Below are positions 2,748-64,000 of a DNA stretch of 64,000 bases, piece by piece. The translations under genes and the position numbers were made by a program. A model generated the notes under the pieces. That model saw nothing but the letters and a program-made list of their open reading frames with translations. It had not been told where the DNA came from and did not search any database. Position 1 is the first letter of the stretch; the number at the start of each line of letters is the position of its first letter. The stretch is from Pelomonas caseinilytica (GTDB taxonomy: Bacteria > Pseudomonadota > Gammaproteobacteria > Burkholderiales > Burkholderiaceae_C): NCBI RefSeq assembly GCF_021353235.1, contig NZ_JAJTWT010000002.1, positions 558,001 to 622,000 of the forward strand. The letters are read 5' to 3'.

Positions 2748-4871
2748 CTAGGCCCTGACAGGCCCGTCGACCGCATCATCGGTGGCGGCCTCGACGCCGA
2801 GGGAGTGTCTGCCCGTCAGCGCCTGCGGCAGGGTTTCGCCCTCGCCCGCCTCGAAACGGTGGAAGACGGTCTGGTCGCGGCCGGCGCGCTTGGCTTCGTA
2901 CAGGGCCGCGTCCGCCGCGGCGTACATGGCCTCGGGCGTCAGCGCCGAGGTCGGCGCGGCCCACCAGGCCAGGCCGAAGCTCGCCGTCACATGGCCGAAG
3001 GGGCTCCGGGCATGAGGCAGTGCCAACCCGCGCAGCGTGGCGCCGAGTTCGGCGACGAAATGCTGGGCCGACTCGGCCGACGCGGCCGAGAAGATGACGC
3101 CGAACTCCTCGCCGCCGACGCGGAAGAGTGCGTCGGTGGACCGCTTGAGGTTGTCCTTGAGGGCCTGCGCCACGGTCTTGAGGATGGCGTCGCCGGACTG
3201 ATGCCCGTAATGGTCGTTGTAGGGCTTGAAGTAGTCGACGTCGAGCATGCACAGGCCCACGGCGTGACCACGGTGGGCGCCGGCCAGCGCCGCCAGGCAG
3301 ACGTCGTTGAAGTGCCGGCGGTTGAAGGCGCCGGTGAGGGGGTCGAGGATGGCGAGGTCGCGCAGTTGCCGGTTGGCAGCCTCGAGCGCCCGGGCGTCTT
3401 CCTGCAGGCACTCCTCCTCGGCCTTGCGGCAGGAGACGTCCATGTGGGTGCCCGCCAGGCGCAGCGGCCGGCCGCGGGCGTCGCGCTTGACGATGCTGCC
3501 CACGCTCTGCACCCAGACCCAGCGGCCGTCGGCATGGCGCATGCGGAACTCCACCGCATAGCGCTCCTCCTGGCCCGCCAGATGGCGCTTCATGGCGTCG
3601 TTGGCCGCGATGAGGTCGCCGGCATGGCACAGCCGCTCCCAGGTCGTCCCGGTGATGGGCTCGAGTTCGGAGCGGCTGCGGCCCAGCATCTCGGCCCAGC
3701 GCTCGTTGACCTCGAGGCGACCGCTCTCGACATGCCAGTCCCAGGTGCCGGCGGCCGTGCCGTCGAGCACATTGCTGAGGTACTGGCGGTCCTCGGCCAG
3801 CACGGCCTCGGTGCGTTCGAGCCGGCGGCGGATGACGAGGCTGCGGGCCACCGCGACCCCCATCAACAGCGAAGCCAGGCTCCCGAGGGCCAGGGCGAGC
3901 AAGGGCAATTGGTCCCGCGCACCGCCGACGAAGGCAGGCCTGGGGCGCAGCACCAGCTGCCATGGCCGGCCGCCGACATCGACGCTGAGCACGGCGTCGC
4001 CCTCCTCGCCAGGCGCGGGTTCGGCGCCCGCGGCACCGAAGATGAGGCGGTGCTGCTCGTCCTGGTCGTAGACGAAGAGATCGAGGTCGTTGGCATCGGC
4101 GCGGCGCATGGCCTCGCGCATGAGGGCAGGCATCTCGATGACGCCGGCCAGGAAGCCCAGCAGTTCGCGACGCCGCGCCTCGACGGTGTCGGGCCGGGCG
4201 GCGCGGTAGACGGGGGCGGAGACGGCGAAGCCGAGCACGACCGGGCCGGGCTGGCCGCGGCGGATGAGGCTGAAGGTCTCTGAAGCCACCGGCGAGCCGG
4301 AGTCGCGAGCCAGCAGCTTGGAGCGCATGCGGCGCGGGTCGAAAGCCATGTCCACGCCCAGGGCCGCCCCCGCCTCGGGCCAGGAGTACAGCACCGGCAG
4401 ATGCAGGTCGCGCGGGCGCGCCGCAATGAAGTCGTCACCGGCGGCCCCGCCCTCGGCCGCGGCCGGCTCGACGATGCGATAGCCCCGCTGCTCGGCGGCG
4501 GCGCGGCGCTCGAAGGCGGAGAGGTCCGCGTCGCTCACGACGGGCTGCCACTCCAGCAGGGTCAGGGCCGAGCCGCCGCTCAACAGGCCTCGGCCATAAC
4601 GCCTGAACTGATCGAGCGAGGGCTGGCCCTGGACGGACAGCAACTGGCCGCTCACCTCAAGGGCCTCGATGGCCCGCACCAGCTGCAGGTCGAAGGCGGC
4701 GACGACGCTCTGGCCGATCGCATTCAGCACCTCGCGCTGTTGGGCCGCGGCCTTCTGCGTCAGCGAGCGAAAGGCGCCGATGCTGGCGAGCAGCCCCGCC
4801 AACACCACCACGGCGACGAGGGCGGCATCCAGGGCGAGGGGTAGCAGGCGGGACTGCGAGCCCTGCTTCAC
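2748..4871 (-). CDS. Membrane diguanylate cyclase with CHASE, PAS and GGDEF domains
   Basis: A 707-residue sensor predicted to make cyclic di-GMP. Order: N-terminal membrane helix (about 12-32), extracytoplasmic CHASE-type sensor (about 75-310), second helix (about 322-345), PAS/PAC (about 365-480), short coiled linker and GGDEF (about 495-670). The catalytic signature is RVGGEEF. An RxxD inhibitory site (RSTD) precedes it by five residues, so product feedback is likely. The chosen start is GTG at 4871, with a GGAGG about seven bases upstream. No EAL domain is present. The signal sensed is unknown. Confidence 0.88.
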   Translation of the reverse strand: MKQGSQSRLLPLALDAALVAVVVLAGLLASIGAFRSLTQKAAAQQREVLNAIGQSVVAAFDLQLVRAIEALEVSGQLLSVQGQPSLDQFRRYGRGLLSGGSALTLLEWQPVVSDADLSAFERRAAAEQRGYRIVEPAAAEGGAAGDDFIAARPRDLHLPVLYSWPEAGAALGVDMAFDPRRMRSKLLARDSGSPVASETFSLIRRGQPGPVVLGFAVSAPVYRAARPDTVEARRRELLGFLAGVIEMPALMREAMRRADANDLDLFVYDQDEQHRLIFGAAGAEPAPGEEGDAVLSVDVGGRPWQLVLRPRPAFVGGARDQLPLLALALGSLASLLMGVAVARSLVIRRRLERTEAVLAEDRQYLSNVLDGTAAGTWDWHVESGRLEVNERWAEMLGRSRSELEPITGTTWERLCHAGDLIAANDAMKRHLAGQEERYAVEFRMRHADGRWVWVQSVGSIVKRDARGRPLRLAGTHMDVSCRKAEEECLQEDARALEAANRQLRDLAILDPLTGAFNRRHFNDVCLAALAGAHRGHAVGLCMLDVDYFKPYNDHYGHQSGDAILKTVAQALKDNLKRSTDALFRVGGEEFGVIFSAASAESAQHFVAELGATLRGLALPHARSPFGHVTASFGLAWWAAPTSALTPEAMYAAADAALYEAKRAGRDQTVFHRFEAGEGETLPQALTGRHSLGVEAATDDAVDGPVRA

Positions 4872-9551: not shown

Positions 9552-10208
9552 CTAATAGTCCACCGGTAGGGGATCCAGGCTCCGCCAAATGTACCAAACC
9601 GCTACCGATCGGTAGGGGGCCCAGGCGTCGCCGACTTCGCGGGCCTCGGCGCGGGACACGGGCTCGCCGGAGAAGTAGTTCTGGCTGATGCCCTTGAGCA
9701 GGCCGACGTCGTCCAGCGGCATGACGTTGGGGCGCATCAGGTGGAAGATGAGGAACATCTCGGCCGTCCAGCGGCCGATGCCGCGGATGGCGACCAGTTC
9801 CTCGATGATGGCCTCGTCGTCCATCTGCGCCCATTGGCGCACGTGGACGCGGCCGGCGTCGAAATGCTCGGCCAGGTCGCGCAGGTACTCGACCTTGCGG
9901 GCCGACAGCCCGGCGGCACGCTGGGCCTCGACGCTCAGGCCCAGCACGCTGGCAGGCAGGAACTTCGGCATCAGGTCGACCCAGCGATGCCAGACCGACT
10001 GCGCCGCCTTGACCGAGATCTGCTGTCCGACGATGGATCGGGCCAGCGTGGCGAAGGCATCGCCGCGGCTTTGCAGCCGGGCTTCGCCGAACTGGGGGAT
10101 GAGTTTCTTCATCACCCGATCGCGCCGGGCGAGGTGCTTGCACGCCTCGTCCCAGTAGGGCGGCACGACCACCTCGGGGGCGGCCTCGACGGGAGGCTTG
10201 GACGCCAT
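9552..10208 (-). CDS. DNA-3-methyladenine glycosylase 2 family (HhH-GPD)
   Basis: A 218-residue base-excision repair glycosylase of the HhH-GPD superfamily, AlkA/Mag type, expected to remove alkylated purines. The segment [16 protein letters not shown] (about 62-77) and the helix-hairpin-helix with catalytic aspartate ([20 protein letters not shown] then PLDDVG, about 140-170) are visible. There is no C-terminal iron-sulfur cluster Cys set, which separates it from Nth/MutY. Its ATG shares one base with the cysS stop (TGATG), so the two are [15 protein letters not shown] coupled. Confidence 0.88.
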
Positions 10209-52053: not shown

Positions 52054-52293
52054 TCAGCGCGTCGCTTCGGAGGCGGCTTCCGCCGCGCGGCGGGCGGCGT
52101 CGTCCACGCTGCCCTGCACCTGCTCGCCGACCGCCCGGGGCTGGGGCAGCGCCGCGCCGCCCGTGGCGTTGGCGCTTGCAGATGCGGCGCTGGCCGGCGG
52201 CTTGAGCGCGGTGGCCTGCTTCTTGGCCAGCGACAGCACGATGGCCGCAACGATGACGAGGGCGAGAAGGCTGAAGGCAGCGCGCATGGTCAT
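52054..52293 (-). CDS. Small exported or membrane protein, unknown
   Basis: A 79-residue protein: one hydrophobic helix (about 4-22), then a low-complexity Ala/Ser region ending [11 protein letters not shown]. It starts at ATG 52293 (or 52287) and lacks a clear ribosome site. Precedes thpR by eight bases. No family recognised; the tail is Ala-rich and could form a helix. Reality as a gene is moderately supported by spacing and helix. Confidence 0.45.
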
Positions 52294-52355
52294 GCCGCGT
52301 CGTGGAGGAGTTGGCAAGCATAGCCGCGGCCCGCCGAAGGTCATCGCTCGCGCAA

Positions 52356-52369
52356 TTGATGCAGCGCAA
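52356..52369. promoter_or_regulatory. Possible FNR/Dnr-type box upstream of nirK
   Basis: TTGATGCAGCGCAA keeps the first half-site TTGAT and the last CAA of TTGATnnnnATCAA (two mismatches). It is centred about 88 bases before the nirK start, with an A+T-rich stretch after it. Plausible because nirK is normally FNR/Dnr controlled. Confidence 0.45.
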
Positions 52370-52450
52370 ATACATATTTCCACGACCTTCCTAGGATTTC
52401 CTCCGGGTTCGCGGCATGTGCCGCCACCACTTCAACCCTGGGGAGACCCT

Positions 52451-53899
52451 ATGTTCAAACGCCTGCTCCTGCTCGCGGCCGTCGCCACCTCGACGCTGCT
52501 GAGCCCGCCCGTCCTGGCCGCCAGCAGCGGCCTGCCCGTCATCAAGGCCCAGCTCACCAGCCCGCCCCTCGTGCCGCCGCCCACCGGGCGCAAGGCGCCG
52601 GCCAAGGTCGTCGTCGAGCTCGAAGTCGTCGAGAAGGAGATGCCCATCTCCGAAGGCGTCAGCTACACCTTCTGGACCTTCGGCGGCACCGTGCCGGGCA
52701 GCTTCATCCGCGTGCGCCAGGGCGACACCGTGGAGTTCCACCTGAAGAACCACCCCAGCAGCAAGATGCCCCACAACATCGACCTGCACGGCGTCACCGG
52801 CCCCGGCGGCGGCGCGGCCTCCAGCTTCACGGCGCCGGGCCATGAGTCCCAGTTCACCTTCAAGGCCCTCAACGAAGGCATCTACGTCTACCACTGCGCC
52901 ACCGCGCCGGTGGGCATGCACGTGGCCAACGGCATGTACGGCCTCATCCTCGTCGAGCCGCCCGAGGGCCTGCCCAAGGTCGACCACGAGTACTACGTGA
53001 TGCAGGGCGACTTCTACACGGCGGGCAAGTACCGCGAAAAGGGCCAGCAGCCCTTCGACATGGAGAAGGCCATCGCCGAGCAGCCGACCTACGTGCTGTT
53101 CAACGGCGCCGAGGGATCGCTGACCGGCGACCGCGCCATGACGGCCAAGGTCGGCGAAACGGTGCGCCTGTTCGTCGGCAACGGCGGCCCCAACCTGGTG
53201 TCGAGCTTCCACGTCATCGGCGCCATCTTCGACCAGGTGCGCTACGAAGGCGGCAGCAACATCCAGAAGAACGTGCAGACCACGCTCATCCCCGCGGGCG
53301 GCGCGGCCATCGTGAAGTTCACGGCCAAGGTGCCCGGCAGCTACGTGCTGGTCGACCACTCCATCTTCCGGGCCTTCAACAAGGGCGCCCTGGCCATCAT
53401 GAAGATCGACGGCCCCGAGGACAAGAGCATCTATTCCGGCAAGGAGGTCGATTCGGTCTACCTGGGCGACCGCGCGCAGCCCAACCTGCAGTCGGTGGCC
53501 AGCGCCACCCAGGCGGCCGCCGGCGGCAAGCTCACGCCGCAGGACCAGATCAACGCCGGCCGCGAGCTCTTCGCCGGCACCTGCTCGGTCTGCCACCAGG
53601 CGAACGGCGCGGGGCTGCCCGGCGTCTTCCCGCCCCTGGCCAAGTCGGACTTCCTGGCTGCCGACCCCAAGCGCGCCGTCGGTGTCGTGCTGCACGGCCT
53701 GTCGGGCAAGGTCAAGGTCAACGGCAAGGACTACGACTCGGTCATGCCGCCCATGAACCAGCTCAATGACGACGAGGTCGCCAACATCCTGACCTATGTG
53801 CTCAACAGCTGGGACAACCCCGGCGGCAGCATCTCGGCCGACGAGGTGAAGAAGGCGCGCGCCGCCAAGCCCGCAGCCGCCAACCAAGCGGGCCACTGA
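52451..53899 (+). CDS. nirK: Copper nitrite reductase fused to cytochrome c
   Basis: A 482-residue periplasmic enzyme reducing nitrite to nitric oxide. Signal peptide about 1-24. Type 1 copper ligands are His113? and His108 region (MPHNIDLHG), Cys149 ([11 protein letters not shown]), His157 and Met162. Type 2 copper and catalytic residues fall at His108, His148, Asp111, His254 (SFHVIG) and His303 (VDHSIF). A C-terminal cytochrome c domain (about 365-450) has CSVCH and [11 protein letters not shown]. The fusion supplies its own electron donor. An FNR-like box lies upstream. The next two genes overlap it or each other. Confidence 0.93.
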
Positions 53900-56290: not shown

Positions 56291-56995
56291 TCAAGCCGCC
56301 GGACCTTCGGTCCAGCGCCGCACCGACGCCCGAAGATGGTGGTCCATGGCGGCGGACGCCGATTGCGGGTCCCGGCCCTTCAATGCGCCCAGGATGACCT
56401 CATGCTCGGCGATCGCCGCGCGCCACGTCGCTGCCGACTCCGAGCGGTGGCACAAGCGCAAGGTCGCCGGGTTGTTGCGCCCATCGAAGAGAACGCCGAC
56501 GAGCGCAGCCAGCACGGCATTGCCGCACATCTCCGCAATGCAGACGTGGAAGAGCCGGTCAGATTCGATGGGCCGGCGCCCGACGGCGACGTCGTCGCGC
56601 ATGGCTTGCAGGGCGTCCTCGACACGCCGCAGGCCGTCCTCGTTCTGCCGCGCCGCTGCCAGGCTGGCCACGGAACTCTCCAGAACGGCCCTGGCGTTCG
56701 CCAGCGCCTCGGGCGATTCCCCGAGCACCAGCGGCGCCACATCCGTGCTCAGCTTGGCCGTGGCGCACACATAGACGCCGGATCCCCCGCGGATGTCGAC
56801 ATGCCCGTCGATCTCCAGGGCGATCAGCGCCTCGCGGACCGTCTGCCGCGAGACACCCAGCCGCAAGGCGAGCTCCCTCTCGCTGGGCAGGCGCGAACCC
56901 ATGGCGATGTGGTCCAGGGCGATCAGCGAGCGGATTCGTTCAGCAACCAGTTGATGCTGGCGAGGCGCTTCTTGGCTGGGCAACGGAAGGGACAT
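56291..56995 (-). CDS. GntR-family regulator with FCD ligand domain
   Basis: A 234-residue transcription factor, FadR/UxuR subfamily. Winged helix: SRLPSERELALRLGVSRQTV (about 34-53), then VREALIALEIDGHVDIRGG. The FCD domain (about 90-225) shows Asp and His residues for a metal/ligand site (SDRLFHVCIAE, AEHEVILGAL and MDHHLRASV). Many members respond to sugar acids. Divergent from the GH39 gene (197-base gap), so it probably controls the hydrolase cluster. GntR-type operators before the GH42 gene support this. Confidence 0.87.
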   Translation of the reverse strand: MSLPLPSQEAPRQHQLVAERIRSLIALDHIAMGSRLPSERELALRLGVSRQTVREALIALEIDGHVDIRGGSGVYVCATAKLSTDVAPLVLGESPEALANARAVLESSVASLAAARQNEDGLRRVEDALQAMRDDVAVGRRPIESDRLFHVCIAEMCGNAVLAALVGVLFDGRNNPATLRLCHRSESAATWRAAIAEHEVILGALKGRDPQSASAAMDHHLRASVRRWTEGPAA

Positions 56996-57046
56996 GGATC
57001 ACTCGGCATGGACCGACGGGAGCGCCGGTCCGCCCGCATTCTGCAT

Positions 57047-57062
57047 GATTTAACGCAAAGTC
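57047..57062. promoter_or_regulatory. Candidate operator 1 before GH39
   Basis: GATTTAACGCAAAGTC matches the other two copies at 13 of 16 positions (consensus GATTTAwCGmmAArTC). It lies between the GntR and GH39 starts, 64 bases from the second copy. Confidence 0.55.
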
Positions 57063-57110
57063 ACGTCAGGGGAAGCGCGAAGTGTTTGGGCAACGGACTA
57101 CCTGCAGAAT

Positions 57111-57126
57111 GATTTATCGAAAAATC
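57111..57126. promoter_or_regulatory. Candidate operator 2 before GH39
   Basis: GATTTATCGAAAAATC has inverted ends GATTT/AAATC and a central TCGA. It lies 66 bases upstream of the GH39 start. A nearly identical site precedes the GH42 gene (62075-62090). Confidence 0.65.
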
Positions 57127-57192
57127 TGACGACCGACTCCAGCCCCGACTCAAGGTCGCACGACCAACGGCCCCGCCCAACACGACCGCCAC

Positions 57193-58773
57193 ATGATCAA
57201 ACGCCTGACCTCCATCGCGACCGCCATGCTTGCCTTGGGCCTTTCCAGCCCGACACCAGCGGCCGGCCCCCTCCCGCGCAACGTCGACCTCGACCTCGCC
57301 GCCGCGGTCCAACCCCTGGACCGCTTCTTCGACTTCTGCGTCGGCGCCGACTACATCGGCACCACCGGCCGCCCTGAGAACCTCGCACAGCTGAAGACCG
57401 CCGTGGACGAACTCGGCTTTCGCCACGTGCGCTTCCATGACGTGTTCCACGACGTCTACGGCACGGTCCAGAAGCGGGGCGACGAGTGGGTGTTCGACTT
57501 CAGCGGCATCGACCGCGTCTACGACGCGCTGCTGGCGCGCGGCATCAAGCCCTTCGTCGAACTGGGCTTCTCGCCCAAGGCCATGACCACCTCCGGGCAG
57601 ACCATCTTCCACTGGAAGGGCAACACCTCGCATCCCCTGCCCGGCCCCTGGAGCCAGCTCGTCGAGGCCTTCGCGCGCCACCTGATCCAGCGCTATGGCG
57701 CCGACGAGGTCAGGCAATGGCCCTTCGAGGTCTGGAACGAGCCCAATCTGGCGGGCTTCTGGGAGAAGGCCGATCAGCAGGCCTATTTCGAGCTCTATGC
57801 CAACACCGCGCGGGCGCTGAAGAAGGTCGACCGGGGGCTGAAGGTCGGCGGCCCGTCGACGGCAGGCGCCGCCTGGGTGCCCGAATTGCTGGCCTATGCC
57901 CAGGCGCACGAGTTGCCGGTGGACTTCGTCACCACCCATACCTACGGCGTGACCGAGGGCTTCCTCGATGAATACGGCCAGTCCGACCGCATCCTCGCCA
58001 CCGACCCGGATTCCATCATCGGCGACGTGCGCCGCAACCGCCGCGAGATCCAGGCCTCGGCCTTCGCCGGCATCCCGCTCTACATCACCGAGTGGAGCAC
58101 CAGCTACAACCCGCGGGACAAGGTGCACGACAGCTACGTCAGCGCGCCGTGGATCCTGACCAAGCTGCGCGGCACGCGCGGCCATGCCCAGGCCATGAGC
58201 TACTGGACCTACAGCGACCTGTTCGAGGAGCCGGGGCCGCCGGACCGCGCCTTCCACGGCGGCTTCGGGCTGATGACGCGCGACGGCATCCGCAAGCCGG
58301 CCTGGTTCGCCTACAAATACCTCAACGCCCTGCGCGGCAAGGAGGTGCCGAGCGCCGACGGCCGGGTGCTGGCCGCGGTCGACGGGGGCAGGACGGCGGT
58401 GCTCGTCTGGGACTGGCAGCATCCGGACCAGAAGACCGTCAGCAACGGCGTGTTCTTCGGCAAACCGGTACCCAACGGCTCGGCGCCACCGGTGACGCTG
58501 CAACTGCGCAACCTCGACGCCGGCCGCTACCGCGTGCAGGTCCGCCGCACCGGCCACAAGGCCAACGACGCCTACACCGCCTATCTCGAAATGGGCGCCC
58601 CCAAGGACCTGAGTGCCGAGCAGCTCGCCCAGCTGCAATCCCTCACGCAGGACCGTCCTGAAACCGAAGAACTCGTGAAGGTCGGCCAGGACGGCAAGCT
58701 GCGATGGCAGCTCCCCATGCACAGCAACGACATTGTGCTGCTCACGCTGGAGCCGGTCACCGCCGCGAAGTAA
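57193..58773 (+). CDS. Secreted glycoside hydrolase family 39
   Basis: A 526-residue exported enzyme with a signal peptide (about 1-23). The GH39 acid/base is Glu183 in EVWNEPNLAGFW, and the nucleophile is Glu300 in YITEWSTSYNPRD. DIVRFHDV-like active-site motifs (FRHVRFHDVFHDVYG, about 76-90) are GH39 markers. GH39 includes beta-xylosidase, alpha-iduronidase and beta-galactosidase/arabinosidase activities, so the substrate is open. A C-terminal beta domain lies about 390-520. It heads the hydrolase cluster; the GH43 gene follows by 57 bases. Confidence 0.9.
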   Translation: MIKRLTSIATAMLALGLSSPTPAAGPLPRNVDLDLAAAVQPLDRFFDFCVGADYIGTTGRPENLAQLKTAVDELGFRHVRFHDVFHDVYGTVQKRGDEWVFDFSGIDRVYDALLARGIKPFVELGFSPKAMTTSGQTIFHWKGNTSHPLPGPWSQLVEAFARHLIQRYGADEVRQWPFEVWNEPNLAGFWEKADQQAYFELYANTARALKKVDRGLKVGGPSTAGAAWVPELLAYAQAHELPVDFVTTHTYGVTEGFLDEYGQSDRILATDPDSIIGDVRRNRREIQASAFAGIPLYITEWSTSYNPRDKVHDSYVSAPWILTKLRGTRGHAQAMSYWTYSDLFEEPGPPDRAFHGGFGLMTRDGIRKPAWFAYKYLNALRGKEVPSADGRVLAAVDGGRTAVLVWDWQHPDQKTVSNGVFFGKPVPNGSAPPVTLQLRNLDAGRYRVQVRRTGHKANDAYTAYLEMGAPKDLSAEQLAQLQSLTQDRPETEELVKVGQDGKLRWQLPMHSNDIVLLTLEPVTAAK

Positions 58774-58830
58774 CGGCGTTTCTCGCCGCAAGGCCGTGGA
58801 GCGCTTCGGATCCTTCGCCCAGACTTCGAC

Positions 58831-59880
58831 ATGTCTCACCTCCTCTCCAGACTCCTGCTGGCCTGCATCGCCCTGCCGGTGGCCGCGCTCATGGCGTCCT
58901 GCGCCACGGTCGAGCCGGCCCGGGCGCCGCGCTACGCCGGCTACCTCTTCGTCTACTTCGGCGGCGACAGCACCGCAGACGGCGAGCAGATCCGCTACGC
59001 GCTGAGCGTCGGCAACGACCCGCTGCACTGGCGCGCGCTGAACGGCGGCCGGCCCGTGCTGACCTCCACCGTGGGCGAGAAGGGCGTGCGCGATCCCTAC
59101 ATCGTCCGGGCGCCGGGCGGCGGCAAGTTCTACATCATCGCCACCGACCTGCGCATGGCGGGCAGGGACATGGGCCAGTGGTGGGTGGTACAGCGCCAGG
59201 GCAGCCTGTCCATCGTCGTGTGGGAGTCCGCCGACCTCGTGCATTGGAGCGCACCGCGCCTGGCCCAGGTGGCGCCCGAGGAAGCCGGCAACACCTGGGC
59301 GCCGGAAGCCGCCTGGGATCCGCTGCTCGGCAAGTTCGTCGTGTTCTGGGCGTCCCGTCTCTACGTCCCCGGCGACAAGGACCGTCAGCAACTCACCCAC
59401 AACCGCATGCTGTACGCGACGACGGACGATTTCCGCAGCTTCAGCGAGCCCAGGGTCTGGCACGACCCGGGCCACTCGGTCATCGACGCGACCGTCATCG
59501 AGCATGCCGGCCGCTACTACCGCTTCACCAAGGATGACCGCGAGCCACGCGACGGCACGCCCTGCGCCAAGTCGATCACCGCGCAGCGGTCGAGCTCGCT
59601 GACCTCCACCCACTACGAGTTCATCGCCGACTGCATCGGCCGCGGCGCCATCGGCGACGGCGAAGGCCCGCTGGTGTTCAAGTCCAACACCGGGGAGAAG
59701 TGGTATCTCTTCATCGACGAGTACGGCAAGCGCGGCTATGTGCCCTTCGAGACCACCGACCTCGACAGCGGCCGGTGGACGCCGGTGAAGGACTACCGGA
59801 TGCCCGGCCAACCGCGGCACGGCGTGGTGCTGCCGGTCACGCAGCAGGAGGCCGAGCGGCTGCTCGCGGCCTATCCTTGA
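58831..59880 (+). CDS. GH43-like glycoside hydrolase lipoprotein
   Basis: A 349-residue protein with a lipobox-like N-terminus (LPVAALMASC, about 15-24), so it is probably an outer-membrane or periplasmic lipoprotein. The beta-propeller shows the GH43/62 pattern: GVRDPYIVRAPGGGKFYIIA (about 91-110), EAGNTWAPEAAWDPLLGKFV with the likely acid Glu (about 151-170), and DGEGPLVFKSN (about 276-286). Activities in this family include arabinofuranosidase, xylosidase and galactanase. Part of the GH39-GH43-GH42 cluster. Confidence 0.82.
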   Translation: MSHLLSRLLLACIALPVAALMASCATVEPARAPRYAGYLFVYFGGDSTADGEQIRYALSVGNDPLHWRALNGGRPVLTSTVGEKGVRDPYIVRAPGGGKFYIIATDLRMAGRDMGQWWVVQRQGSLSIVVWESADLVHWSAPRLAQVAPEEAGNTWAPEAAWDPLLGKFVVFWASRLYVPGDKDRQQLTHNRMLYATTDDFRSFSEPRVWHDPGHSVIDATVIEHAGRYYRFTKDDREPRDGTPCAKSITAQRSSSLTSTHYEFIADCIGRGAIGDGEGPLVFKSNTGEKWYLFIDEYGKRGYVPFETTDLDSGRWTPVKDYRMPGQPRHGVVLPVTQQEAERLLAAYP

Positions 59881-59913
59881 CCCGGCGCGGCGTCGCGGCA
59901 GGCGCTGCGATCA

Positions 59914-62031
59914 GTGACAAATATGGCGCTCACCCGTACCGGCCCGGGCCTTGGCGCGCCTCCGGGCGGCCTGGCCCGGACCCCTGGCGCGGACAATGAG
60001 CCGCCCCTCAGCCGACGCCGGAGCAACGCCTTGGCCCTGTCCCTCACGCCCTGCCATGCGGTCGCCTGGCTGCTGGCCTGGGCCTTGCTCGCCCTGCCCT
60101 GTCGGGCCCAGGCGCCGGCCGACGAGCTGGCGGCCTGGGAGGCCCAGGTCCAGGCGCTGAAGGACTACGGCACGCGGGCACAACTGCTGGACTTCCTGGA
60201 AACCGGCGTGAAGCGCCACGAGGCGGCCGGCCAGGCCCGCATGGCCGCTGCTGCGCTGCTGGAACTCGGCAAGCAGTTGCGCGACGAAGATGGCCCTCGC
60301 GCCGAACAGTTGCTCGAGAGGGGCGCCGCCCTGCTCGGACAGGCCCCCGACCCGGCCCTGCAATTCCGCTACCGGCTGTTGAGGCTGGGCCAGCTCAAGG
60401 CCCGGCACCAGTTCGAGCAGGCCGTCGCCGAAGGCAACGAGCTGCTGGCCACCGCCCGCGCGCGCCGCGACTGGCGCGACGAGCTCAAGGTGCTGCTGGC
60501 CCTGGAGGAAGGCTGGGAGCAGTTCCACGCCTTCAGCCGCTACATCGAGGATGCGATGCGCCTGGCCGTCGCCCACCCCGGCGACCGGCTGACCTGGTGG
60601 GCGCGCAGCGAGTGGGCCGACCGGCTGCGCTCCGAGGGCCGGCGCGCCGAGGCCGAGCGCCTGTTGCTGGAGGTGCTGCAGGAGCAGGTCACGGCCGGCG
60701 ACGGCATCGAGCAGATCCGCAGCCTCGTCAACCTCGGCATGTTCTACCGCAGCGGCCGCGAGTGGGACAAGCTGCTGCCCCTGGGCCCGCGCGCAATCCG
60801 CATCGCCGACCAGCTCGGGCGAACGCCCACCCTGCTGCCGCATTTCCTCTGCAACCAGTCGGACGCCCTGCTGCTCGCCGGCATGCCCGCCCCCGCCCTG
60901 GAGATGGCCGATGCCGCTCTGGTCGCGGCACGCGGCGCCCCGGGGCCCACGCACGTCGCGCGCTTCAACCGCGGCAAGGCCCTGAACCGCCTGGGCCGGC
61001 ACGGCGAGGGCCTGGCCATCCTGGAAGCCGAGGCCCAGGGCCCCGAGCGCTGGGAGATGTTGAACGAGCTGGCCGAGGAATACGCCTTCGCCCACCGCCA
61101 TGAGCAGGCCTATGCCACGCTGCAGGAGCATCTGCAGGGCCTGCTCAAGAGCCAGGAGGAAGCGCACCGCGCCGGCTTGAGCCTGGACCAGGCGCTGGCC
61201 GAGGCGGACCGTGAGCGCAGCCAGCGCCAGGCCAGCGAACGCCGCACCCAGCAGGTCATCACCGCGGCCGTCATCGCCGCGGCCCTTGCTTGTGCGGGCA
61301 CGGCCTGGCTGCTGGTGCGTGCCGCGCGTCGACATGGGCGCGAACTCGCGGCCCTCAACGCCCAGTTGCGGGAGACCGCGGTCACCGACGCGTTGACCGG
61401 CCTGCACAACCGCCGCCACCTGTTGTCCCGCATCGAGGCCCACGTCGCCGCGGCCGACCGCGCCCACCGCGACCAGGCCCGCACCGGCATGCCCCCGGTC
61501 GACCTGCTGTTCTTCCTCATCGACCTCGACCACTTCAAGCGCATCAACGACAGCCACGGCCATCCCGCCGGCGACGCCGTGCTGGCCGAGGCCGCCACCC
61601 GCTTCAAGGGCCTGGTGCGCCGCGAGGACGAATTGATCCGCTGGGGCGGCGAAGAGTTCCTGCTGATGACGCGGGACACCCCACGCGACCACGCCGCCGC
61701 GCTGGCGGAAAGGCTGCGGCAGGCACTGCTGCAGCGCTCCTTCCAGCTGCCCGACCGGCAAGAGCTGGCCGTCTCCTGCAGCGTCGGCTTCGCGCCCTAT
61801 CCGCTGGGCAGCGGCGGCTCCTGGGAAGCCTCGGTGGAATTGGCCGATCAGGCGCTCTACCAGGCCAAGGCCAGGGGGCGCAACGGCTGGTGCGGCGTGC
61901 TGCGCTTGAAGCCGCCGGCGACCGAGGCGCCGAGCTGCGGCCTGGAGCAGGCCATCGCGCAGAACCTCGTCGTGGCGCTGTACTCGCCGACGGCGAAGTC
62001 GGGCGGAAATAGGTCAGACCAAAATTCGTGA
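59914..62031 (+). CDS. TPR-GGDEF diguanylate cyclase in the hydrolase cluster
   Basis: A 705-residue protein: signal or anchor helix (about 45-65), a TPR-like helical sensor (about 70-440), a second membrane helix (about 448-468) and a cytoplasmic GGDEF domain (about 485-660). The active site is RWGGEEF, with an RxxD inhibitory site (RRED) five residues before. The N-terminal 25 residues before the signal helix may be misassigned, and ATG 59923 is an alternative start. It lies between GH43 and GH42, so it may link glycan sensing to c-di-GMP. Its 3' end overlaps a GntR-type operator. Confidence 0.88.
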   Translation: MTNMALTRTGPGLGAPPGGLARTPGADNEPPLSRRRSNALALSLTPCHAVAWLLAWALLALPCRAQAPADELAAWEAQVQALKDYGTRAQLLDFLETGVKRHEAAGQARMAAAALLELGKQLRDEDGPRAEQLLERGAALLGQAPDPALQFRYRLLRLGQLKARHQFEQAVAEGNELLATARARRDWRDELKVLLALEEGWEQFHAFSRYIEDAMRLAVAHPGDRLTWWARSEWADRLRSEGRRAEAERLLLEVLQEQVTAGDGIEQIRSLVNLGMFYRSGREWDKLLPLGPRAIRIADQLGRTPTLLPHFLCNQSDALLLAGMPAPALEMADAALVAARGAPGPTHVARFNRGKALNRLGRHGEGLAILEAEAQGPERWEMLNELAEEYAFAHRHEQAYATLQEHLQGLLKSQEEAHRAGLSLDQALAEADRERSQRQASERRTQQVITAAVIAAALACAGTAWLLVRAARRHGRELAALNAQLRETAVTDALTGLHNRRHLLSRIEAHVAAADRAHRDQARTGMPPVDLLFFLIDLDHFKRINDSHGHPAGDAVLAEAATRFKGLVRREDELIRWGGEEFLLMTRDTPRDHAAALAERLRQALLQRSFQLPDRQELAVSCSVGFAPYPLGSGGSWEASVELADQALYQAKARGRNGWCGVLRLKPPATEAPSCGLEQAIAQNLVVALYSPTAKSGGNRSDQNS
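62011..62021. promoter_or_regulatory. GntR/FadR-type operator 1 before GH42
   Basis: AGGTCAGACCA is one base from the palindrome TGGTCAGACCA, the TGGTnnnACCA type bound by several FadR-subfamily GntR proteins. It lies in the last codons of the GGDEF gene, 29 bases centre to centre from the second site. Confidence 0.5.
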
Positions 62032-62039
62032 AAACTCTC

Positions 62040-62050
62040 TGGTCTTACCA
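62040..62050. promoter_or_regulatory. GntR/FadR-type operator 2 before GH42
   Basis: TGGTCTTACCA matches TGGTnnnACCA and is followed by ATT, as in PdhR/LldR-like sites. It lies 74 bases before the GH42 start. Confidence 0.6.
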
Positions 62051-62074
62051 ATTTACACTGAGGTTTAATCGATT

Positions 62075-62090
62075 GATTTATCGACAAATC
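62075..62090. promoter_or_regulatory. Candidate operator 3 before GH42
   Basis: GATTTATCGACAAATC is an inverted repeat differing by one base from the 57111 site. It is 34 bases upstream of the GH42 start and overlaps an AATCGATT palindrome just before. Confidence 0.65.
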
Positions 62091-62123
62091 TCCTACCCTC
62101 CTCTCATTCGACGCCCACCGTCC

Positions 62124-64000
62124 ATGAAGCCTTCGAGAATCCACGCCCTGGTGCTCGCCCTGCTGCTGTCCGCAGGCCACGCAAGCGCTGCCGATCTCCC
62201 GCCCGGCTGGCCTGGCGCCGGCCAGCTCTTCGTCGGCACCAACTACCAGCCCTTCGACCGCAGCCGGGAGCAGATCGAGCGCGACATCGAGCGCATGAAG
62301 GCCGCCGGCATGAAGGTCGTGCGCTTCGGCGACCTGTCCTGGGACTCCTTCGAGCCCGCCGAGGGCCAGTTCGACTTCCGCCTCGCGGACTGGATCATGG
62401 ACCGCATGCAGGCCGCCGGCCTCAAGGTCCTCCTCGACATCCCCGGCCAGCCGGCGCCGCGCTGGCTGCATCACAAATACCCAGGGGTCGACATCGTCAA
62501 CGCGGCCGGTACGCGCCTCGCGCCGGCCGAGCGCTACATGGACAACACCAGCGACCCGGACTACCGCCGCCTGCTGGTGCGCCTGGCCGACACCCTGCTC
62601 AAGCGCTATGCCAGGCATCCGGCCCTGTTCGCCGTGGGCTACAACAACGAGAGCGGCAACGGCATGCTGTCGTACTCCGAGGCCGACCGGCAGCGCTTCA
62701 TCGCCTGGCTGCAAAAGAAGTACGGCACGCTCGACGCGCTGAACAAGGCCTGGGCCACCCAGCGCTGGTCGCGCCGCTTCGGCCAGTGGGACGAAGTCAC
62801 CCTGCCCTACCAGGACGGCCCCGGCGCCTACGAGCCCAATCTCGACCTGCGCCGCTTCTGGTCTCAGCAGACCATCGAAGTGCTGGAGCTGCTCGACGCC
62901 TCCCGCCGCCGCCACGCGCCCGACAAGCCCACCATCTCCAACCTCTGGGACAGCGCGCCCCGCAAGGGCTTCGACTACTTGTCCAGCTACCGCGGCTATG
63001 CAAGCTACGGCGCCATGGGCTTCTATCCCGGCGACCCGCTGTACGCGGCCTTCGAGGCCACCATGATGCGCGCCGGCATGGACACGCCCATCTGGTTCAA
63101 CGAGTTCACCGCCGGCGGCACCGGCTACTACGGCACCCGCGGACGCTCGCGCATGTGGGCGCACTTCGGCCTGGCGCTCGGTGCGCAGGCCGTCATGCCC
63201 TGGACCTGGCACAGCCACCACGGCGGCGAGGAGCAGGCCCTCTTCGGCCTCATCGACCATGACGACCGCCCCTCGTGGAAGCTCGGCGAGTTCGCCACCA
63301 TCGCCAAGGAGTTCGCCCAGTTGGAGAAGCTCGGCTTCCCGCGCCTGCAAAAGCCCCAGGTCGCCATCGCCTACGCCTTCGACAACATCATCGCCACCAA
63401 CCCGCCCAAGGGCATCTCCAACAGCGTCGCGCCCTACATCAACCCGGGCTACCACAAGCAGATGCTGGGCGCCTACGAGCCGCTCTACAAGGACAACGTC
63501 GACGTCGCCGTCATCCACATCGGCCACGAGGACCTGAGCCGCTACAAGCTGGTCATCGTGCCCGGCATGTATCTGCTGGACCGGGCCTCCACCGACAACC
63601 TGCGCAAGTTCGTCGCCGCCGGCGGCACGGCGCTGATGACGGCGCAATCGGCCAAGGTCAATGACTTCAACCAGTGGCACACCACGCCCCTGCCCGGCGG
63701 CCTGACCGACGTCTTCGGCCTGCGCACCAACGAGTTCTACAACGTCGGCGACGTGACCGTCCGCTATGCCGACGCGCCCGATGCGGAGTTCAAGGGCAAG
63801 GGCCTGGCGCCGGTCGAAGTGCTGGAGCCCTCCACGGCCCAGGCGCTGGCGCGCATCGTCAACGCCGACGGCCAGCCGCCGGCCATCACCGTCAACCGCT
63901 TCGGCAAGGGCCAGGCCATCTACCTGGCCACCTCGGGCCAGCCGCAGTTGCTGGCGCCTCTGTACCGGCGCCTCTACACCGAGCTCGGCATCGAGCGCGG
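62124..64000 (+). CDS. GH42-type beta-galactosidase, secreted (partial at window end)
   Basis: The frame is open from ATG 62124 to the window end, 625 codons visible. Signal peptide about 1-22 (ASA-AD). GH42 landmarks: MKVVRFGDLSWDSFEP (about 63-78), acid/base Glu176 in AVGYNNESGNG, nucleophile Glu327 in IWFNEFTAGG, and the WTWHSHHGGEEQALFGLIDHD region. A beta-galactosidase trimerisation-type domain begins about 410. It probably acts on beta-galactosides such as galactan oligomers. The stop codon is outside the window. Confidence 0.88.
   Translation, partial: MKPSRIHALVLALLLSAGHASAADLPPGWPGAGQLFVGTNYQPFDRSREQIERDIERMKAAGMKVVRFGDLSWDSFEPAEGQFDFRLADWIMDRMQAAGLKVLLDIPGQPAPRWLHHKYPGVDIVNAAGTRLAPAERYMDNTSDPDYRRLLVRLADTLLKRYARHPALFAVGYNNESGNGMLSYSEADRQRFIAWLQKKYGTLDALNKAWATQRWSRRFGQWDEVTLPYQDGPGAYEPNLDLRRFWSQQTIEVLELLDASRRRHAPDKPTISNLWDSAPRKGFDYLSSYRGYASYGAMGFYPGDPLYAAFEATMMRAGMDTPIWFNEFTAGGTGYYGTRGRSRMWAHFGLALGAQAVMPWTWHSHHGGEEQALFGLIDHDDRPSWKLGEFATIAKEFAQLEKLGFPRLQKPQVAIAYAFDNIIATNPPKGISNSVAPYINPGYHKQMLGAYEPLYKDNVDVAVIHIGHEDLSRYKLVIVPGMYLLDRASTDNLRKFVAAGGTALMTAQSAKVNDFNQWHTTPLPGGLTDVFGLRTNEFYNVGDVTVRYADAPDAEFKGKGLAPVEVLEPSTAQALARIVNADGQPPAITVNRFGKGQAIYLATSGQPQLLAPLYRRLYTELGIER

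What the first reader, a model, noticed from the sequence alone, without database searches (positions are those of the whole stretch)
56291..64000. Glycan-degradation locus with a diguanylate cyclase built in
A GntR/FCD regulator, secreted GH39, lipoprotein GH43-like enzyme, TPR-GGDEF cyclase and secreted GH42 lie together on 7.7 kb. A GGDEF protein with a large exported TPR sensor between hydrolases suggests c-di-GMP output tied to glycan availability (for example surface attachment while feeding). Seen: domains, order and shared operators. Inference: joint function and a galactose/arabinose-containing substrate.
Basis: partly seen in the sequence, partly recalled or inferred. Interest (0 to 1): 0.72.

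Follow-up and report, generated by a model that had tools for sequence, protein, structure and literature searches.

The report
Stray signalling gene in hemicellulose cluster
A bacterium has a large gene cluster that apparently digests plant hemicellulose, and one of its many c-di-GMP signalling genes sits inside one operon of that cluster, but relatives mostly carry the digestion genes without it, so the link looks like a local insertion rather than a conserved design.

Summary
Genes, order and shared operators are real. GntR/FCD, GH39, a GH43-like lipoprotein, a TPR-fold membrane diguanylate cyclase and GH42 are collinear at 56291-64184 (GH42 runs 184 bases past the window). They form the left end of a roughly 53-60 kb cluster with GH2, GH127, GH5, GH67/GH78, GH74, GH9, an alpha-fucosidase, TonB receptors and a LacI regulator, pointing to xyloglucan-type hemicellulose. 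A 16-bp LacI-type operator occurs four times in the genome, always in this cluster; two copies precede GH39 and GH42. The cyclase has none and probably rides on the GH39-GH43 transcript.

GGDEF is absent from 17 of 18 same-genus stretches around GH39 or GH42 relatives and from 72 of 80 GH42 loci (7 of the 80 same-genus), including all 13 with GH39. In six of those GH39 directly precedes GH42. The cyclase's two orthologues (61-64%) lie away from hydrolases. With 59 GGDEF domains in the genome, two in the cluster is near chance (P about 0.1). Best reading: lineage-specific insertion of GH43 and cyclase into an older GH39-GH42 arrangement, possibly placing c-di-GMP synthesis under glycan control; untested.

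The parts
56291..56995 (-). GntR/FCD transcriptional regulator (UxuR/ExuR/NanR-like)
   Evidence: Pfam FCD 1.5e-22, GntR 7.5e-19; NCBIfam NanR/UxuR/ExuR models, all below cut-off
57111..57126 (.). LacI-type operator GATTTATCGAAAAATC, start of GH39 67 bases after its end
   Evidence: 4 sites in the whole genome, all in this cluster
57193..58773 (+). secreted GH39, beta-xylosidase-like
   Evidence: Pfam 1.5e-88; best solved relatives are GH39 beta-xylosidases, 6uqj E 4.7e-214
58831..59880 (+). lipoprotein GH43-like glycosidase, arabinofuranosidase-like
   Evidence: Pfam 8.2e-9; NCBIfam BAD1527 4.8e-61, under cut-off; no solved relative at 1e-6; lipobox read by eye
59914..62031 (+). membrane diguanylate cyclase: export signal or anchor, TPR-like solenoid (periplasmic by inference), one TM segment by eye, GGDEF domain with GGEEF and RxxD five residues upstream (meaning of motifs recalled). 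Start could be 59914 or 59923. The last 14 residues run past the end of both orthologues, over the first TGGTC site.
62011..62021 (.). imperfect palindrome AGGTCAGACCA (FCD-type site by inference), inside the 3' end of the GGDEF frame
62040..62050 (.). palindrome TGGTCTTACCA (FCD-type site by inference)
   Evidence: the only other exact TGGTCNNACCA in the 78 kb examined is at C12:667828, near the LacI gene
62075..62090 (.). LacI-type operator GATTTATCGACAAATC, start of GH42 34 bases after its end
62124..64000 (+). secreted GH42, beta-galactosidase-like; stop at 64184, outside the window
   Evidence: Pfam GH42 8.6e-68 and GH42M

Best explanation
The stretch is the left end of a TonB/LacI-type hemicellulose (most likely xyloglucan) utilisation cluster of about 53-60 kb. 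A LacI-family repressor encoded about 45 kb to the right most probably binds GATTTATCGATAAATC before GH39, GH42, the lipoprotein/TonB operon and its own gene, and releases them when sugar from the polymer enters (inferred). The diguanylate cyclase is not a conserved part: GH43 and the cyclase were inserted in this lineage between GH39 and GH42, which are direct neighbours in some distant relatives. The cyclase now probably shares the GH39-GH43 transcript while GH42 keeps its own promoter. If so, glycan would raise the amount of this cyclase through transcription; what its TPR-like domain senses is unknown and need not be a glycan. Shown: genes, operators, neighbourhoods, absence in most relatives examined. 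Inferred: who binds which operator, co-transcription, substrate, direction of the insertion.
For: Operator: 4 sites at up to 2 mismatches in the 5.98-Mb genome, all at C12:615111-667797; the backward pattern gives 0. A LacI gene at C12:666539-667621 lies beside one site; a 75% identical LacI protein lies about 1.8 kb from a site in G008. Gene gaps 57, 33 and 92 bases; no sigma-70-like promoter in 56900-62300 and no terminator-like site between the genes (one lies inside the cyclase gene, fewer than the 2.5 expected by chance). Full-length cyclase orthologues in 2 of 19 other genus genomes and in no other genus among 299 family genomes, this one included, with only the five best candidates per genome scored; the two have unrelated neighbourhoods without hydrolase-cluster matches. 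GH43: one 32% match in 19 other genus genomes at 1e-20. Stretches around GH39 or GH42 relatives in the genus: GGDEF in 1 of 18. GH42 loci: GGDEF in 8 of 80, GH39 in 13 of 80, both in 0. GH39 directly precedes GH42 in L160, L161, L162, L211, L219, L230. Substrate: GH74 like solved xyloglucanases, GH5 like xyloglucanases, alpha-fucosidase, GH39 beta-xylosidase, GH31 beside GH42 in two relatives.
Against: No expression data, and no promoter was recognised at all, so co-transcription rests on spacing. The cluster holds two GGDEF genes, and one relative (G016, L045) has a different GGDEF gene just upstream of the same GH42, which leaves room for repeated recruitment. GH67, GH78 and GH127 do not fit pure xyloglucan. 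In same-genus loci L042/L043 other genes (a GH31) also lie between GH39 and GH42, so the ancestral state in this genus need not be the bare pair; only 6 of 80 GH42 loci show the bare pair.
Confidence: 0.72

Rival explanations
1. One reading: the cyclase is a functional part of the glycan locus. Its TPR domain senses the glycan or the hydrolases outside the membrane and raises c-di-GMP so that cells attach while feeding.
For: Same strand, 33-base gap to GH43, between two operator-bearing promoters; GGEEF intact. A second GGDEF gene with a beta-propeller (Reg_prop/Y_Y_Y) sensor lies in the same cluster, and one relative has such a gene just before the orthologous GH42.
Against: Hydrolase loci without GGDEF are the rule in what was sampled; the two cyclase orthologues found live without hydrolases; the two orthologues (64-66%) of the second GGDEF gene also stand away from the hydrolases, in G012 and G015; chance of two or more GGDEF genes in 53 kb about 0.10.
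Confidence: 0.15
2. Pure bystander: with 59 GGDEF domains in 5.98 Mb, one landed here; it is transcribed by read-through or by itself without any selected link to feeding. (This differs from the best explanation only in denying any functional consequence.)
For: Density of about one per 100 kb; 8 of 80 GH42 loci have a GGDEF gene within 10 kb, against 15.8 expected at this genome's density.
Against: The frame is intact, motifs are kept and identity to orthologues is 61-64%, so the enzyme itself looks selected; a place inside a regulated transcript would be likely to alter its expression.
Confidence: 0.4
3. The substrate is arabinogalactan, pectin side chains or glucuronoxylan rather than xyloglucan.
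For: GH43 arabinofuranosidase-like, GH127 beta-L-arabinofuranosidase, GH42, GH2, GH67 alpha-glucuronidase, GH78 rhamnosidase.
Against: GH74 and GH5 enzymes nearest to solved xyloglucanases plus an alpha-fucosidase within the same operator-defined cluster. The cluster may be two modules with several substrates.
Confidence: 0.25

Closest known systems
Xyloglucan utilisation locus of Xanthomonas (PMC8245568, passages read)
   Same: TonB receptors, GH74 xyloglucanase, fucosidase and galactosidase functions in one cluster
   Different: That locus has GH31, GH35, GH95 and an esterase; here GH39, GH42, GH2, GH127, GH67/GH78, GH9 and GH5 accompany GH74, with a LacI-type operator and two GGDEF genes. 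The words GGDEF and diguanylate do not occur in that paper's main text.
Bacteroidota polysaccharide utilisation loci with hybrid two-component sensors (recalled; PMC3243724 seen only in a listing with the start of its abstract)
   Same: Outer-membrane receptor plus hydrolases; the second GGDEF gene of the cluster has the same Reg_prop/Y_Y_Y sensor domains
   Different: Output is GGDEF, not histidine kinase with DNA binding; no SusD match in the lipoprotein beside the receptor; the orthologues of this sensor found are not beside hydrolases
GGDEF proteins with a TPR region
   Same: Helical-repeat sensor part, one membrane segment, GGDEF output
   Different: Full-length relatives were found only in three genomes of this genus. 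PMC12282931 (listing and start of abstract only) concerns TPR proteins that modulate c-di-GMP in Vibrio; whether they are related to this one was not tested.

Membership tests
Active diguanylate cyclase (GGDEF family) | GGDEF domain over the curated cut-off with GG[D/E]EF signature | tested here: met
   132.5 bits against 23.8; GGEEF and RxxD seen in the [11 protein letters not shown], meaning of motifs recalled
Active diguanylate cyclase (GGDEF family) | c-di-GMP synthesis in vitro or in vivo | not testable with these tools
   needs an enzyme assay
TPR protein | TPR repeats by sequence model | tested here: inconclusive
   only sub-threshold Pfam TPR hits
TPR protein | superhelix of helical hairpins | tested here: met
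   model of residues about 68-416, pLDDT mostly 84-97; top PDB matches are TPR proteins, E 1.8e-7
SusC/SusD-type polysaccharide utilisation locus | SusC/SusD pair | tested here: not met
   TonB receptor present; the neighbouring 484-aa lipoprotein has no SusD match in Pfam. Not every ORF of the cluster was scanned.
Xanthomonas-type xyloglucan locus | GH74 plus TonB receptors | tested here: met
   (GH74 inferred from matches to solved xyloglucanases; Pfam gives Sortilin/BNR repeats)
Xanthomonas-type xyloglucan locus | GH31, GH35, GH95 in the same cluster | tested here: inconclusive
   none among the cluster ORFs scanned, but not all ORFs were scanned
Conserved hydrolase-cyclase locus (the finding's claim) | GGDEF gene kept with the hydrolases in relatives | tested here: not met
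   GGDEF in 1 of 18 same-genus stretches and 8 of 80 GH42 loci; in 0 of the 13 loci with both GH39 and GH42

The most novel reading that the evidence does not exclude
Non-homologous diguanylate cyclases are recruited repeatedly into the slot just before GH42 in hemicellulose operons (TPR-GGDEF here, beta-propeller Reg_prop-GGDEF in G016), each time upstream of a GH42 promoter with TGGTCNNACCA sites, so that glycan induction sets c-di-GMP by the amount of enzyme rather than through a dedicated glycan sensor.
Probability: 0.13. Interest if true: 0.55.

Novelty: new variant of a known kind. Interest (0 to 1): 0.28.

Why it matters
If the cyclase is really induced with the hydrolases, it would tie feeding on plant cell walls to surface attachment in one lineage by simple operon capture, and the four-site LacI-type regulon makes that directly testable. 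As it stands, the main use of the result is cautionary: in a genome with 59 GGDEF domains, one lying inside a catabolic operon is weak evidence of function.

Tried and rejected
Idea that Reg_prop/Y_Y_Y-GGDEF sensors are in general the regulators of glycan loci in this genome: 9 Y_Y_Y matches, 8 of them at GGDEF proteins by coordinates. I listed neighbours of the other 7 plus one further GGDEF protein (8 stretches). Read by eye from protein starts, they did not look like hydrolase clusters; 2 of the 8 stretches hold a TonB plug match. This was not a domain scan. Rejected on that basis.

Idea that GGDEF is enriched near GH42: at this genome's density 15.8 GGDEF genes would be expected in 80 stretches of 20 kb; 8 of 80 stretches had one. 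Other taxa have other GGDEF densities, so this only says there is no sign of enrichment. 61 of the 80 loci have full flanks; the 80 are the best of 130 relatives.

A first GGDEF count by tblastn (4 of 80) was too blunt: the GGDEF query alone recovered 40 of 59 known sites of this genome at 1e-8 and 44 of 59 at 1e-6. It was replaced by an HMM built from 57 of the 59 domains, which hits all 51 own-genome stretches (largely by construction), 8 of 80 GH42 loci and 1 of 22 further stretches. Of those 22, 18 are centred on GH39 or GH42 relatives and 4 are the remaining parts of one G008 contig; I count the 18, two of which are from this same genome (L055, L058).

TGGTCNNACCA is not rarer or commoner than chance in the window at one mismatch (8 found, 9.1 expected). 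Its weight rests on position: two exact copies in 78 kb, each starting within 50 bases of a LacI-type site, and two exact copies before the GH42 of G016. In the wider scan only L153 (the same G016 contig) had copies near GH42: 2 of 13 copies in all.

Relatives of the sensor on plasmids: none at 1e-5. It carries no weight.

Literature: eight searches listed no paper that by title or abstract start describes a diguanylate cyclase inside a glycan utilisation cluster. Lists were capped at 8-20 rows. Passages were read only for PMC8245568 and PMC10714752. Absence there is not proof.
Full report
What is there. The likely GH42 start is the ATG at 62124, before what reads as a signal peptide, and it ends at 64184, outside the window. 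The GH43 assignment is weak in Pfam (35.7 bits against 32.2) and clearer but under cut-off in NCBIfam; no solved relative reached 1e-6.

The cyclase. The protein has an N-terminal export signal or anchor and one membrane segment (both read by eye) around an all-helical region, then a GGDEF domain with GGEEF. Pfam does not call TPR above cut-off, but the predicted structure, made from three sequences, gives helical hairpins at residues about 68-416 with block pLDDT mostly 84-97 and dips to 67, and the best PDB matches are TPR proteins such as LGN. The GGDEF half of the model is poor (blocks under 60) and is not used. So 'TPR-GGDEF' is right as a fold.

The wider cluster. The window is C12:558001-622000 of a 5.98-Mb genome. 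To the right follow a beta-helix protein, GH2, GH127, GH2 with an F5/8 domain, GH5, and one open frame with GH67 and GH78; then on the other strand a Reg_prop/Y_Y_Y/GGDEF protein, an unassigned frame, a Sde182-like protein, a protein that reads like a halogenase, GH5, a GH74-like enzyme, an alpha-L-fucosidase, a TonB receptor, a lipoprotein, a tryptophan halogenase-like protein, GH9, GH5 and a LacI regulator. The GH74-like enzyme and one GH5 enzyme are closest to solved xyloglucanases (for the GH5, two of the four best chains are named xyloglucanase and the best is called only a GH5 cellulase), and GH39 to solved beta-xylosidases. In two relatives a GH31 lies next to GH42. Xyloglucan is therefore the best single guess, though GH127, GH67 and GH78 suggest a mixed diet.

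Operators. GATTTATCGANAAATC occurs at 57111 and 62075 and nowhere else in the window at up to two mismatches; 100 shuffles gave none. In the whole genome there are four sites at up to two mismatches, all between C12:615111 and 667797, and none for the backward control; 3 of 20 genus genomes, this one included, have sites. One lies beside the LacI gene, and a 75% identical LacI protein in G008 lies about 1.8 kb from such a site. A central CG fits LacI-family sites (recalled). TGGTCTTACCA occurs exactly twice in the 78 kb examined, at the GH42 promoter and near the LacI gene, each starting within 50 bases of the 16-bp site. It resembles FCD-type sites (recalled), so the GntR/FCD protein is a fair candidate; this is not tested. 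In G016 two exact TGGTCNNACCA sites also precede GH42. The cyclase has neither site directly upstream. The last 14 residues of its frame extend past the end of both orthologues and overlap the first TGGTC palindrome, as if the gene had been placed against an existing GH42 promoter (inference).

Is the cyclase part of the locus? Three tests say no. First, its own relatives: only G006 and G008 among 19 other genus genomes carry a full-length orthologue; G009, G012 and G016 have only weak partial matches. No other genus among 299 family genomes, this one included, has a match at 1e-20, with five candidates scored per genome. The two orthologues have neighbours that do not match each other, and apart from GGDEF domains none matches the hydrolase cluster; in G008 they include CHAT, MFS and RmuC proteins, and in G006 the starts of two nearby proteins look like GuaB and GuaA by eye. 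Second, the hydrolases in the genus: of 18 stretches centred on GH39 or GH42 relatives (two of them from this genome), 17 have no GGDEF by HMM, among them L042 and L043 with GntR/FCD, GH39 and GH42 (and GH31, domain-checked in L042), and L044 with GH5, GH2, beta-helix, GH42, GH2 and GH67 at 54-85% identity. The six stretches that cover the whole G008 contig with L042 and L044 hold no GGDEF. Third, a wider sample: 80 GH42 loci, the best of 130, from Burkholderiales, Sphingomonadales, Caulobacterales, Acidobacteriota and others (groups read from record titles). At least seven of the 80 are same-genus contigs met before: L152, L153, L168, L171, L172 and L193 agree in contig length with L044, L045, L043, L051, L050 and L042, and L165 agrees in position with a G008 hit. 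GGDEF is found within 10 kb in 8 of 80, GH39 in 13 of 80 (one query at 1e-8), both in none; flanks are cut in some, L211 and L230 among the 13. In L160, L161, L162 (Rugamonas, Duganella, Oxalobacteraceae) and L211, L219, L230 (Acidobacteriaceae, Acidobacterium and Bryobacterales MAGs) GH39 directly precedes GH42. GH43 has no close relative in the genus either (best 32% at 1e-20; a 26% match in L049). The simplest history is that GH43 and the cyclase entered between GH39 and GH42 in this lineage.

Chance. With 59 GGDEF domains, a 53-kb cluster holds 0.52 on average; two or more has P 0.097, and 0.119 for 60 kb. This was computed after seeing the data and assumes even spacing.

Results on the other side. 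The cluster does have two GGDEF genes of different types. G016 has a Reg_prop-GGDEF between the beta-helix gene and the 75% identical GH42. But the G016 protein is nearest to another GGDEF protein of this genome (45%) and only 33% identical to the one in the cluster, and the two orthologues of the cluster's own Reg_prop-GGDEF (64-66%) in G012 and G015 stand among genes without matches to the hydrolase cluster. Repeated recruitment is possible but not shown.

Mechanism. Most likely the LacI protein represses four units; uptake of hemicellulose sugars relieves it; GH39, GH43 and the cyclase are made together and GH42 starts its own unit. c-di-GMP would then follow enzyme amount, subject to whatever the TPR domain senses and to product inhibition. 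The transcript, the binding and the output are all inferred.

Comparison with what is known. In Xanthomonas the xyloglucan locus is linked to expression of virulence factors (PMC8245568, passages read), and plant glucans alter motility (PMC10714752, passages read); GGDEF and diguanylate do not occur in the main text of either. So a link from glycan to lifestyle is plausible in general, but this gene is not yet evidence for one.

Noticed in passing
L002:6695-9838 (C12:638694-641837, minus strand): A second GGDEF protein in the same cluster with Reg_prop/Y_Y_Y beta-propeller sensor domains like those of Bacteroidota hybrid sensors; its two orthologues, in G012 and G015, lie outside hydrolase clusters.
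   Followed up: yes
L045:6242-9460 and 9603-9686: In G016 a different Reg_prop-GGDEF gene precedes the orthologous GH42, with two exact TGGTCNNACCA sites between them.
   Followed up: partly
L067:17782-17838 (C12:667782-667838): LacI-type operator and TGGTCTTACCA side by side between the LacI gene and a ThuA-like gene, the same pairing as at the GH42 promoter: possible dual LacI/FCD control.
   Followed up: partly
L002:1830-6737: One open frame of about 1,635 codons holds complete GH67 (alpha-glucuronidase) and GH78 (alpha-rhamnosidase) domains; whether it is a fusion or two genes in one stop-free frame was not resolved.
   Followed up: no
L068:532-1365 (C12:670532-671365): Another regulator, GntR with UTRA domain, beside a second TonB receptor and a sodium:solute symporter at the right edge of the cluster.
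   Followed up: no
window 2871-3353 (minus strand): Another GGDEF domain lies near the left edge of the window (C12:560871-561353).
   Followed up: no
window 52163-53899 (plus strand): An ORF that reads like a copper nitrite reductase with a C-terminal cytochrome c part; read by eye, no domain search made.
   Followed up: no
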